Below are positions 1-40,199 of a DNA stretch of 49,290 nucleotides, piece by piece. Position 1 is the first letter of the stretch; every line of letters starts with the position of its first letter. The stretch is from an uncultured bacterium (GTDB lineage Bacteria; Actinomycetota; Thermoleophilia; Solirubrobacterales; 70-9). The notes under the pieces are model-generated. The model did no database searches. It had not been told where the DNA came from and saw only the letters and a list, made by a program, of their open reading frames with translations. The position numbers and the translations under genes are program-made. The stretch spans positions 1-49,290 of the forward strand of contig CAIUSP010000105.1 in assembly GCA_903901855.1 (NCBI GenBank). Reading direction: 5' to 3'.

Positions 1-182
1 ACGCGTGGGGGACCGTATTGACACGGGTCGAGGATGGGGTGGGGGTGGCGGTCGCCGACTGCGACCTCTCCTCCCTTGCCAGCGTGCGTGACCAGATCCC
101 CGCCATCGACTCTCGCCGACCGGAGAGTTACCCCTGGCCCGGTGTCGCCGAGATGGCCCTCGCGGTCCAGGGAGCGCTGTAG
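1..182 (+). CDS. C-terminal end of a carbon-nitrogen hydrolase (nitrilase/omega-amidase family), partial
   Basis: The reading frame is open from the left edge (codons start at base 3) to the TAG at 180-182, leaving 59 residues. The tail reads AWGTVLTRVEDG, then VAVADCDLSSLASVRDQIPA and DSRRPESY. This is the typical end of the nitrilase superfamily, where a strand giving V-x-D-x-D-L precedes a helix with V-R-x-x-x-P and an R-R-P-x-x-Y motif. These enzymes hydrolyse amides or nitriles with a Glu-Lys-Cys triad. The triad lies outside the window, so substrate and activity cannot be judged. The TetR gene starts 2 bp after the stop, so the two are probably co-transcribed. Family assignment rests only on this tail. 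Confidence 0.7.
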   Translation, partial: AWGTVLTRVEDGVGVAVADCDLSSLASVRDQIPAIDSRRPESYPWPGVAEMALAVQGAL

Positions 183-184
183 CG

Positions 185-802
185 ATGGCGAGCGAGAAGG
201 CCGCCGACAAGCGCCGATCGATCCTCGAGGCCGCTACCAAGGTCTTCGCCGAGAAGGGCTTCCACGCATCACGTGTCTCGGACATCGCCAGCGAAGCCGG
301 TGTCGCTCACGGGTTGGTCTACCACTACTTCGACTCGAAGGAGCAGATGCTCAACGAACTCTTCAGCGACCGTTGGTCGCTCCTGCTCGCTGCGATGGCA
401 GAGGCGGACGAGACCCTCGAGACCCCGCGCGAGAAGCTCGCCGCCGCCGCCGCATTCATCGTCGACAGCTATCGCCATCAGCCCGAGGTGATGAAGGTCG
501 TGATCGTCGAGGTAACCCGGGCGGCGAACTCGTTCGGTCGCATACATCTGCCCGAGATCACCCGTGCCTACGACCAGGTTGCCTCGTTCGTCGAGCAGGC
601 CCAGCAGAAGGGTGAGATGCGAAATGACGTCTCTTCGACCGACGCATCACTCCTCTTCTTCGGTGCGGTGGAGCAGTTCCTCTCCGGTTGGATCTTCGAG
701 CTGGTTCCGGCCAACGAGGAGGAGTTCGACCGGGCGAAGGAACTGGTGGTCGACACGATCTACCGTGGCCTCGCTCCGATCTCCGAGCCTGTCGGTGATT
801 AG
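185..802 (+). CDS. TetR/AcrR family transcriptional regulator
   Basis: A 205-residue protein with a TetR helix-turn-helix at about residues 8-55 (RRSILEAATKVFAEKGF, then VSDIASEAGVAHGLVYHYF). The C-terminal two thirds is a helical ligand-binding domain of normal length, similar in feel to the fatty-acid-responsive FadR/AcrR subgroups. TetR proteins are usually dimeric repressors released from palindromic operators by a small ligand. The gene starts 2 bp after the amidase stop and has no promoter of its own that I can see. Its ligand and targets are unknown. A TetR-size perfect palindrome lies upstream of the acyl-CoA dehydrogenase at 38908-38927, but nothing in the sequence links the two. Confidence 0.9.
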   Translation: MASEKAADKRRSILEAATKVFAEKGFHASRVSDIASEAGVAHGLVYHYFDSKEQMLNELFSDRWSLLLAAMAEADETLETPREKLAAAAAFIVDSYRHQPEVMKVVIVEVTRAANSFGRIHLPEITRAYDQVASFVEQAQQKGEMRNDVSSTDASLLFFGAVEQFLSGWIFELVPANEEEFDRAKELVVDTIYRGLAPISEPVGD

Positions 803-38383: not shown

Positions 38384-38824
38384 TCAGGAATCGATCGCAC
38401 GGAGTCTGCGCGAGATCTCCTCGTCGACATCCAGCGGTTCCTCGCCCCGACGGACCCGCCGCTCGTTGTTGGCGATCACCACCTGCCGGATCTCCTCTCT
38501 GAGTTCGGGGTCTTCCGAGTGCACCGCGTTCATCAGTCGCTCGACCTCGGCATCCACGTCCACCGGATCCTCGCCACGTCTCTCCTTACGGAAGTTCGCC
38601 GCCTCGACCATCTGCCTCACCTCGTCTCGGGCGACCGCCGAGCCGCCTTCGTCGGCCTTGCCCGGATCCTCGCGGTCGATCGAGAGAGGACCGCCCCCGA
38701 TCCCTTTGTAAGCGCCCTTCGAACCGATCGCGAAGATCGCACCTGCCAGCGGCAGGGCGATCACCACTACGACGATCAGCACCAGCATCAGCGTGGAGGA
38801 CTCGACTGCAAGGGGTGGACTCAC
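38384..38824 (-). CDS. membrane-anchored protein with two copies of an R-R-G-E-x-P-x-D-V repeat
   Basis: A 146-residue protein. An N-terminal membrane helix (about 11-33) is followed by two homologous units of about 35 residues. Unit A (about 65-98) has E-V-R-Q-M-V-E-A-A-N, then E-R-R-G-E-D-P-V-D-V-D-A-E-V-E-R. Unit B (about 107-141) has E-I-R-Q-V-V-I-A-N-N, then V-R-R-G-E-E-P-L-D-V-D-E-E-I-S-R-R. The units look helical and highly charged. I cannot name a family. It starts at GTG, 7 nt after a TAGGCT box. Confidence 0.65.
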   Translation of the reverse strand: MSPPLAVESSTLMLVLIVVVVIALPLAGAIFAIGSKGAYKGIGGGPLSIDREDPGKADEGGSAVARDEVRQMVEAANFRKERRGEDPVDVDAEVERLMNAVHSEDPELREEIRQVVIANNERRVRRGEEPLDVDEEISRRLRAIDS

Positions 38825-38831
38825 GCTATTG

Positions 38832-38837
38832 AGCCTA
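38832..38837 (-). promoter_or_regulatory. candidate -10 box, leaderless start of the repeat protein gene
   Basis: TAGGCT on the minus strand lies 7 nt before the GTG at 38824. Confidence 0.45.
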
Positions 38838-38895: not shown

Positions 38896-38901
38896 TAGGC
38901 T
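38896..38901 (+). promoter_or_regulatory. candidate -10 box of the acyl-CoA dehydrogenase gene
   Basis: TAGGCT lies 6 bp upstream of a perfect palindrome. The start site predicted about 7 nt downstream of the box falls at the edge of that palindrome. The message would have a leader of about 90 nt and a GGAGAAG ribosome binding site. Confidence 0.4.
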
Positions 38902-38907
38902 TCCGAT

Positions 38908-38927
38908 TATTGACTCGCGAGTCAATA
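38908..38927. promoter_or_regulatory. perfect 20-bp palindrome, probable repressor operator for the acyl-CoA dehydrogenase
   Basis: TATTGACTCGCGAGTCAATA is a perfect inverted repeat with 10-bp arms, at the predicted transcription start 70 bp upstream of the ATG. Size and form (T-T-G-A-C-T-N4-A-G-T-C-A-A core) suit a TetR-family regulator of fatty-acid degradation. The regulator is not identified. Confidence 0.6.
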
Positions 38928-38936
38928 TCTTCGTCA

Positions 38937-38951
38937 GTCAAAGCCTTTGAC
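38937..38951. promoter_or_regulatory. second palindrome in the acyl-CoA dehydrogenase leader
   Basis: GTCAAAG-C-CTTTGAC has perfect 7-bp arms and shares the T-T-G-A-C half-site with the 20-bp palindrome 9 bp upstream. It may be a second, weaker operator or a leader hairpin. Confidence 0.4.
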
Positions 38952-38996: not shown

Positions 38997-40199
38997 ATGG
39001 TTGATTTCACTCTCACAGACGAGCAGAGGGCGATCAAGGAGATGGCGCACGACTTCGCGGAGAAGGAGATGCGTCCGGTTGCGGCGGAGCTCGACAAGGA
39101 CGGCGGTTGGCCCCAGGAGGTCCTCGAGAAGTCCCACGAGGTCGGCATCCTGACCACGCACGTCCCGGCCGAGTACGGCGGCCCCGGGATGAGCTACTTC
39201 GACGGAGTGCTGATCGAGGAAGAGCTCGGTTGGGGATGCTCCGGGATCGGCACCTCGATCGCGGCCAACGGCCTCGCATCGGCCCCCGTGGCCATCGGCG
39301 GCAGCGAGGAACTGCAGAAGCAGTTCTTCGGTGAGCTCGTCGAGAGCCCCAAGCTCGCTTCCTTCTGCCTCACCGAGCCAGACGCCGGTTCAGACGTCTC
39401 GGGGATGAAGACCACCGCGACCAAGAAGGGTGACAAGTACGTCATCAACGGGTCCAAGTGCTTCATCACCAACGGTGGTTACGCCGACTACTTCACGGTC
39501 TATGCCAAGACCGACAAGGACGCCGGCCACCGCGGTATCTCGGCCTTCCTGGTACCGAAGGACGACACGGTCGTGGTCGACAAGAAGGAAGACAAGATGG
39601 GCCAGCGGGCATCCAACACCGCGACCATCACCTTCAACGAGACCGAGATCCCCGAGGGCAACCTCCTCGGAGAGGAGAATCACGGCTTCAAGCTCGCCAT
39701 GATGACCCTCGACCGGACCCGTCCGGGAGTGGCGGCGATGGCCGTCGGGATCGCACGTGCTGCGTTCGAGCACGCCTCCGAGTACTCCAAGGAGCGCGTT
39801 CAGTTCGGCATGCCGATCGCGATGAACCAGGGTGTCTCCTTCCTGATCGCCGACATGGCGACCAAGATCGAGGCCGCCCGTCTGCTGGTCTGGAAGTCGG
39901 CAGTGATGCTCGATCAGGGTCAGCGCAACACGCTGATCTGCTCTCACGCCAAGCGTTTCGCGGCGGATACCTGCATGGAGGTCACGACCGACGCCGTCCA
40001 GGTATTCGGTGGCTACGGCTACATCAAGGAGTACCCGGTAGAGAAGCTGATGCGCGACGCGAAGCTCATGCAGCTCTACGAAGGAACCTCCCAGATCCAG
40101 CGTCTGGTGATCGCCAAGGAGGTACTGATGGGACGCGGCGCCGACGAGGCTACGTCCTCGAACGGTTCCGCTCCCGAGAAGGAGCCCGCCACCGCCTGA
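38997..40199 (+). CDS. acyl-CoA dehydrogenase
   Basis: A 400-residue FAD enzyme for the first step of acyl-CoA beta-oxidation. Signatures are S-F-C-L-T-E-P-D-A-G-S-D near residue 120, the substrate strand I-N-G-S-K-C-F-I-T-N-G, R-V-Q-F-G-M-P-I near 265 and Q-V-F-G-G-Y-G-Y near 338. L-Y-E-G-T-S-Q-I-Q-R has Glu362 at the catalytic base position of short/medium-chain enzymes. Chain length is not decided. The C-terminal 20 residues form a Glu/Ala/Ser-rich tail. A palindrome at its predicted promoter suggests ligand-responsive repression. A strong terminator follows at once, so it is a single-gene unit. Confidence 0.95.
   Translation: MVDFTLTDEQRAIKEMAHDFAEKEMRPVAAELDKDGGWPQEVLEKSHEVGILTTHVPAEYGGPGMSYFDGVLIEEELGWGCSGIGTSIAANGLASAPVAIGGSEELQKQFFGELVESPKLASFCLTEPDAGSDVSGMKTTATKKGDKYVINGSKCFITNGGYADYFTVYAKTDKDAGHRGISAFLVPKDDTVVVDKKEDKMGQRASNTATITFNETEIPEGNLLGEENHGFKLAMMTLDRTRPGVAAMAVGIARAAFEHASEYSKERVQFGMPIAMNQGVSFLIADMATKIEAARLLVWKSAVMLDQGQRNTLICSHAKRFAADTCMEVTTDAVQVFGGYGYIKEYPVEKLMRDAKLMQLYEGTSQIQRLVIAKEVLMGRGADEATSSNGSAPEKEPATA

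What the first reader, a model, noticed from the sequence alone, without database searches (positions are those of the whole stretch)
38908..38951. Two tandem palindromes with a shared TTGAC half-site at the acyl-CoA dehydrogenase promoter
A perfect 20-bp palindrome lies just downstream of a TAGGCT -10 box and a 15-bp palindrome follows 9 bp later. Both carry T-T-G-A-C arms. Position and form suit a repressor of fatty-acid degradation responding to acyl-CoA. I do not see the same 20-mer elsewhere in the window, so other targets and the regulator must be sought genome-wide.
Basis: partly seen in the sequence, partly recalled or inferred. Interest (0 to 1): 0.5.

Follow-up and report, generated by a model that had tools for sequence, protein, structure and literature searches.

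The report
Operator of a FadR-like fat-burning switch
A short palindrome in front of an acyl-CoA dehydrogenase gene is very probably the docking site of a repressor that shuts off fatty-acid breakdown in a little-studied group of soil actinobacteria, and the gene for that repressor lies in the same window.

Summary
The 20-bp palindrome (38908-38927) is real and very probably an operator. Its core TTGACTNNNNAGTCAA occurs exactly 4 times in the 1.66-Mb genome: before this acyl-CoA dehydrogenase (ACAD), an ETF operon, a thiolase and an HD-domain gene. It is in 133 of 229 genomes of the class; the reversed control pattern is in 3. In 15 genomes, this one included, it stands before the orthologous ACAD, 8-16 bp after a TAnnCT -10 box. 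The TetR protein at 185-802 is very probably the regulator. TetR and site co-occur in 126 of 229 genomes; 5 have the TetR only, 7 the site only, 91 neither. Its own operon carries a one-mismatch operator: contig C74 (operator, then C-N hydrolase gene) overlaps the window's first 141 bases exactly. Of 8 TetR-less relatives asked, all keep the ACAD and 7 lack the operator there. Its nearest solved relatives are Bacillus FadR. The second palindrome (38937-38951) is of chance quality and not conserved. The reading as a repressor site for fatty-acid degradation is strongly supported by computation; acyl-CoA as inducer is inferred only.

The parts
38908..38927 (.). operator: 20-bp perfect palindrome, core TTGACTCGCGAGTCAA at 38910-38925
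   Evidence: exact core pattern repeated in the genome and present in 15 orthologous promoters; 24.5 bits with a matrix trained on relatives only
38896..38901 (+). TAGGCT, predicted -10 box of the ACAD promoter; the operator core begins 8 bp after it (the 20-mer 6 bp after it) and so should cover the transcription start
   Evidence: TAnnCT within -25 to -6 of the operator core in 15 of 15 orthologous promoters, against 4.65% of shuffles
38937..38951 (.). second palindrome GTCAAAGCCTTTGAC; probably chance, not part of the conserved signal
   Evidence: chance-level frequency, best matrix score -6.8 bits, not found in the 14 other orthologous promoters
38997..40199 (+). acyl-CoA dehydrogenase, the gene controlled
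   Evidence: Pfam PF00441, PF02770, PF02771
38384..38824 (-). divergent small membrane protein sharing the intergenic region (start codon uncertain); whether the operator controls it is unknown
   Evidence: cluster of 9 homologues, 7 of them divergent from the ACAD orthologue in relatives; no Pfam match
185..802 (+). TetR-family protein, FadR-like; proposed regulator
1..182 (+). 3' end of the C-N hydrolase (nitrilase-family) gene that precedes the TetR gene; the operator of that operon, TTGACTGATGCGTCAA, is on contig C74 at 850-865
   Evidence: exact 141-bp overlap between the C74 end and the window start; PF00795 on the C74 part

Best explanation
The palindrome 38908-38927 is the operator of a TetR-family repressor of the FadR type, encoded at 185-802. 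A dimer of it binds TTGACTNNNNAGTCAA over the transcription start of the ACAD promoter and blocks transcription. The same protein binds like sites before the ETF operon, a thiolase, a second ACAD and its own operon (C-N hydrolase, then TetR), and so forms a self-limiting beta-oxidation regulon. Shown by computation: the site family, its targets, its conservation together with the -10 box, its co-occurrence with this TetR, and the fold of the TetR. Inferred: binding by this TetR, repression rather than activation (from the position over the start), and release by acyl-CoA (from its nearest relatives).
For: Own genome: 4 exact sites (ACAD, ETF beta with ETF alpha and ETF-QO, thiolase, HD_4 protein) and 3 one-mismatch sites (second ACAD, C-N hydrolase, Rieske protein). 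Class: 133 of 229 genomes with an exact site, 3 of 229 with the reversed control. Of 67 sites examined (of 74 exact sites in the 25 family genomes), 57 lie within 150 bp before a called gene start, against 12.8% of random positions, and 7 inside called genes, against 87.7%. 50 of the 67 precede ACAD, ETF beta, thiolase, C-N hydrolase, RibD or TetR genes. Regulator: both 126, TetR only 5, site only 7, neither 91 of 229 (Fisher; phi 0.89 against 0.54 and -0.11 for two other TetR proteins of the genome). Self-targeting: 25 of 29 TetR loci have a matrix hit of at least 14 bits upstream within 1.5 kb (6 of the 25 sites were also in the training set). Operator absent at the ACAD in 7 of 8 TetR-less relatives asked. 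Nearest solved structures: Bacillus FadR by profile (about 1e-44, next other family 5e-25) and by fold (six best entries, Z 19.9-21.7).
Against: G006 (99% complete) has perfect sites before ACAD and ETF beta but no TetR match. G084, G097, G098, G128, G184 and G237 also have a site and no TetR match; in G128 the site lies inside a gene. TetR without an exact site: G026, G064, G088, G168, G193; G026 has two one-mismatch sites, the other four were not followed up. Four of 29 TetR loci show no good self-site; in one of them (L145) little upstream DNA is held. Some sites precede genes with no evident tie to fatty acids (HD_4 by Pfam; an arginase-like and flippase-like genes as read from sequence). 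Another TetR (C108) also correlates with the site, less well. The fold lead of FadR over other TetR proteins is small (19.9 against 19.8). No binding or expression data.
Confidence: 0.86

Rival explanations
1. The site is a true operator of a catabolic regulon, but the TetR at 185-802 is only one of its targets (or a co-inherited neighbour) and a different regulator binds it.
For: G006 and six other genomes have sites without a match to this TetR. Another TetR of the genome (C108) also correlates with the site, phi 0.54.
Against: The FadR-like TetR correlates better (phi 0.89). In the distant family f7, in 14 of the 18 genomes that have both, site and TetR gene lie on one contig within 10 kb. 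The C108 TetR has matches in three f4 genomes that have no site.
Confidence: 0.09
2. A variant of the best explanation, not exclusive of it: the regulator responds not to long-chain acyl-CoA but to a CoA ester from the pathway next to its own operon (CoA-transferase, C-N hydrolase, acyl-CoA carboxylase), so the regulon serves amino-acid or short-chain acid breakdown.
For: The operator and the C-N hydrolase are preceded by further catabolic genes on C74 and in relatives (apart from the C-N hydrolase their names are read from sequence, not from a family search). None of the targets that I annotated with Pfam is an acyl-CoA ligase; not all targets were annotated.
Against: The nearest solved relatives are FadR proteins, which are inhibited by C14-C20 acyl-CoA in B. 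subtilis (PMC4525379). ETF, ACAD and thiolase are the recurrent targets.
Confidence: 0.3
3. The palindrome is a chance repeat.
For: 7 of 60 shuffled windows hold an even palindrome this long.
Against: The core pattern is in 133 of 229 genomes against 3 for the same pattern reversed, sits at the same place in 15 orthologous promoters, and lies near a gene start in 57 of 67 cases.
Confidence: 0.01

Closest known systems
FadR (YsiA) of Bacillus subtilis and B. halodurans, TetR family
   Same: Closest solved sequences and folds. B. subtilis FadR represses five fad operons, one of which holds fadR itself and etfB-etfA, and is inhibited by C14-C20 acyl-CoA (PMC4525379, passages read). Here too: ACAD, ETF, thiolase and its own operon.
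   Different: About 24% identity. 89 bits against a cut-off of 200 in the NCBIfam FadR model. HTH region GLVYHYF instead of GTIYLYF. Operon partner is a C-N hydrolase. The Bacillus box as I recall it (TGAATGANTNNTCATTCA, from memory, no call) differs, although many relatives' sites contain TGACTGA.
FadR of Thermus thermophilus (TTHA0101)
   Same: TetR-family regulator of fatty-acid genes; binding consensus TTRNACYNRGTNYAA has a like half-site (PMC5597230, passages read).
   Different: 15-mer with a 1-nt centre, against a 16-mer pattern with a 4-nt centre here; looser structural match (Z 17.4, rmsd 6.0).
FadR of Sulfolobus acidocaldarius
   Same: TetR-family, 16-bp dyad motif, acyl-CoA-released repressor of a fatty-acid gene cluster (PMC6449355, passages read).
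   Different: Different ligand binding, which its authors think convergent; archaeal gene cluster; lower in the fold list (Z 17.9).

Membership tests
FadR of the Bacillus (YsiA) type, TetR family | TetR-type N-terminal HTH | tested here: met
   PF00440, 2.7e-19, 69.1 bits, above the curated cut-off
FadR of the Bacillus (YsiA) type, TetR family | closer to solved FadR than to other TetR proteins in sequence and fold | tested here: met
   Profile E about 1e-44 for 1vi0, 3whb, 5gp9, 5gpa, next 5e-25. Six best entries by Z are these FadR proteins, though the sixth (19.9) is tied with others (19.8). By Foldseek E-value 3dew ranks first and FadR second.
NCBIfam NF053878 FadR equivalog | score above the curated cut-off of 200 bits | tested here: not met
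   89 bits, the best of 24 families listed; so it is called FadR-like, not a FadR equivalog
FadR of the Bacillus (YsiA) type, TetR family | operators before beta-oxidation genes | tested here: met
   41 of 67 examined sites precede ACAD (24), ETF beta (12) or thiolase (5)
FadR of the Bacillus (YsiA) type, TetR family | operator in its own operon | tested here: met
   25 of 29 TetR loci in relatives; own genome by contig overlap (one-mismatch site)
FadR of the Bacillus (YsiA) type, TetR family | same operator sequence as Bacillus | tested here: inconclusive
   the Bacillus box is recalled only; a paper search for it gave 0
FadR of the Bacillus (YsiA) type, TetR family | DNA release by long-chain acyl-CoA | not testable with these tools
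   needs protein
Thermus FadR operator | TTRNACYNRGTNYAA, 15-mer | tested here: not met
   consensus from PMC5597230; the sites here have a 4-nt centre between the arms

The most novel reading that the evidence does not exclude
In this class of actinobacteria a FadR-like repressor with its own operator code governs a flavoprotein regulon: several ACADs, ETF with ETF-QO and, in three relatives, the flavin-synthesis gene ribD. It is wired into a C-N hydrolase operon, so it may sense an acyl-CoA made from amide or amino-acid breakdown rather than from lipids, and match flavin supply to dehydrogenase demand.
Probability: 0.25. Interest if true: 0.5.

Novelty: new member of a known kind. Interest (0 to 1): 0.38.

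Why it matters
It gives a ready, testable regulator-operator pair and regulon for an order with few cultured members. It offers a natural experiment, since a clade without the repressor has also no operator at the same gene. The kind of system (a TetR-type FadR regulon) is well known.

Tried and rejected
Rejected: the second palindrome as a second operator (chance frequency, low matrix score, not conserved). Two-mismatch matches of TTGACTNNNNAGTCAA in the own genome are at noise level (25 places with up to 2 mismatches, the 7 good ones included, against 27 for the control). The weaker matches at C60, C61 and C84 were looked at and dropped. The C108 and C42 TetR proteins were tested as rival regulators and fit worse; the remaining TetR-like hits of the genome were not tested.

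Literature: searches for TTGACTNNNNAGTCAA, TGACTGACCAGTCA, FadR with TGAATGA and a five-term search gave 0 papers. Broader searches gave 8 to 20 listed titles each, of up to 467 hits; I saw nothing on this regulon in the titles and abstract starts shown. Only held open-access papers were searched; regulon databases could not be. The B. halodurans FadR structure paper is not held.

In one search two reference proteins were mispicked (ETF, C-N hydrolase); the tally was redone. In one search the fixed offset misplaced the start in G036, where only about 230 bp upstream are held; there I rely on the whole-locus scan (best 8.5 bits, over the start codon). Gene calls in the loci are from my own simple caller, so distances are approximate: for the C40 ACAD the site is 182 bp before the start it chose and 51 bp before a longer reading frame. 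The joint counts were read by hand from the lists. The matrix was trained on 63 sites that include 6 of the 25 TetR-locus sites.

Full report
WHAT IS THERE. The window holds one perfect 20-bp palindrome, TATTGACTCGCGAGTCAATA, at 38908-38927. Its 16-bp core (38910-38925) ends 71 bp before the ATG of an acyl-CoA dehydrogenase (ACAD; 38997-40199, Pfam ACAD domains) and begins 8 bp after a TAGGCT box at 38896-38901. A 15-bp palindrome follows at 38937-38951. In 60 dinucleotide shuffles, 7 had an even palindrome with arms of 10 or more. Odd ones with arms of 7 are no rarer in shuffles (mean 6.25) than in the window (4). So the window alone does not settle the matter.

GENOME-WIDE. The genome (G000, 1.66 Mb, 108 contigs, 92% complete) has 8 places matching the 16-mer within 3 mismatches, against 3 for the reversed control. 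With the pattern TTGACTNNNNAGTCAA there are 4 exact and 3 one-mismatch sites; the two-mismatch level is noise (25 places in all against 27 for the control). The exact sites lie before the ACAD in the window, an ETF beta - ETF alpha - ETF-QO operon (C21), a thiolase (C92) and an HD_4 protein (C41). The one-mismatch sites lie before a second ACAD (C40; 51 or 182 bp, by start codon), a C-N hydrolase (C74) and a Rieske protein (C24, 126 bp).

RELATIVES. The exact pattern is in 35 of 41 genomes, the own one included, and in 133 of 229 genomes of the class searched with a 90% completeness filter; the reversed control is in 3 of 229 (G009, G132, G177). I fetched 67 of the 74 exact sites in the window's family (22 of 25 genomes; G018, G021 and G024 were left out). 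Of these 67, 57 lie within 150 bp before a called gene, against 12.8% of random positions in the same loci, and 7 lie inside called genes, against 87.7%. 50 of the 67 precede homologues of the window's ACAD (17: 15 true orthologues counting the window's own, at 72% identity or more, and 2 distant ones near 30%), another ACAD (7), ETF beta (12), thiolase (5), C-N hydrolase (5), RibD (3) or TetR (1). The other 17 precede other genes (7), lie inside a called gene (5) or have no called gene near (5).

ORTHOLOGOUS PROMOTERS. In these 15 genomes the operator stands before the orthologous ACAD. They were picked because they have the site, so they show its place, not its frequency. The operator begins about where transcription should start. 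The homologue of the divergent membrane protein (38384-38824) faces the ACAD in 7 of the 14 others. The second palindrome is in none of the 14, and its best score with the operator matrix is -6.8 bits, against 24.5 for the first. The matrix was trained on 63 sites from relatives, none from this genome.

THE REGULATOR. The window's TetR (185-802) has matches in 34 of 41 genomes at E up to 1e-20 and in 131 of 229 class genomes at E up to 1e-15, the own one included. Joint counts with the exact site: both 126, TetR only 5 (G026, G064, G088, G168, G193), site only 7 (G006, G084, G097, G098, G128, G184, G237), neither 91; Fisher p 2e-48, which ignores kinship. Within the distant family f7: 18, 2, 1 and 16 of 37 (p 2e-7). 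Two other TetR proteins of the genome fit worse (phi 0.54 and -0.11 against 0.89). In 14 of the 18 f7 genomes with both, site and TetR gene are on one contig within 10 kb. In 8 of 10 f7 loci fetched the site is within 40 bp before an ACAD-like start (one of the 8 proteins was checked with Pfam, the rest by eye). The other two loci gave no clear call.

SELF-CONTROL. Of 29 TetR loci in relatives, 25 carry an operator of at least 14 bits upstream within 1.5 kb; three have none and one a weak one. The largest score in 20 shuffled windows was 10.9. Six of the 25 sites were in the training set. In the window's own genome the TetR gene lies at the contig start. The first 141 bases of the window equal the end of contig C74, so the order is operator (one mismatch), C-N hydrolase, then TetR two bases after the hydrolase stop.

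NATURAL EXPERIMENT. Nine genomes that lack the TetR or an exact site were asked for the ACAD, and all nine have it. Of the 8 TetR-less ones, 7 (five of family f4, G170, G186) have no operator above 12 bits at it (best 11.3, in G039, 187 bp upstream), although three f4 promoters keep a TACACT box. In G036 only about 230 bp upstream could be seen. The eighth, G006, has a perfect operator, which speaks against a strict tie. G026, which has the TetR but no exact site, has a one-mismatch operator at the ACAD (17.1 bits) and another at its TetR (22.5 bits).

WHAT THE TETR IS. Profile search against solved structures: Bacillus FadR at about 1e-44, next family at 5e-25. AlphaFold2 model: mean pLDDT 91. 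The six best entries by Z are FadR of B. subtilis and B. halodurans (Z 19.9-21.7, rmsd 2.1-3.0); KstR2 and another follow at 19.8, so the fold lead is small. By Foldseek E-value 3dew comes first and FadR second. It falls below the NCBIfam FadR cut-off (89 against 200). I therefore call it FadR-like.

MECHANISM. Shown: site family, targets, position, conservation, co-occurrence. Inferred: a TetR dimer sits on the operator across the start site and represses; an acyl-CoA releases it, as in B. subtilis FadR (PMC4525379). The neighbouring C-N hydrolase and CoA-pathway genes leave room for another CoA ester as inducer.

VERDICT. It is a new member of a known kind.

Noticed in passing
window 1-141 and the end of contig C74 (L023): Exact 141-bp overlap shows that the two contigs adjoin; the window's first bases are the end of a C-N hydrolase gene.
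   Followed up: yes
L074, L092, L123: RibD-like genes (name read from sequence, no family search; one cut by a contig end) start within 40 bp of the operator in three relatives, which would tie flavin supply to flavoprotein dehydrogenases.
   Followed up: partly
L072, L080, L110, L114: Four sites have the centre TTGT or ACAA (TTGACTTTGTAGTCAA) and different neighbours; they may belong to another regulator.
   Followed up: no
L153:2926-2949: At one TetR locus the site reads TTGATTGACTGGTCAATCAA, two overlapping registers of the arm, which might allow two dimers.
   Followed up: no
window 38832-38837, minus strand: TAGGCT also occurs on the minus strand 8-13 bases before the first start codon of the divergent membrane protein, hinting at a nearly leaderless transcript or a later start.
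   Followed up: no
L021:5315 (G000 C41): An exact site 44 bp before an HD_4-domain gene; among the 67 sites examined no other precedes such a gene as far as I saw.
   Followed up: no
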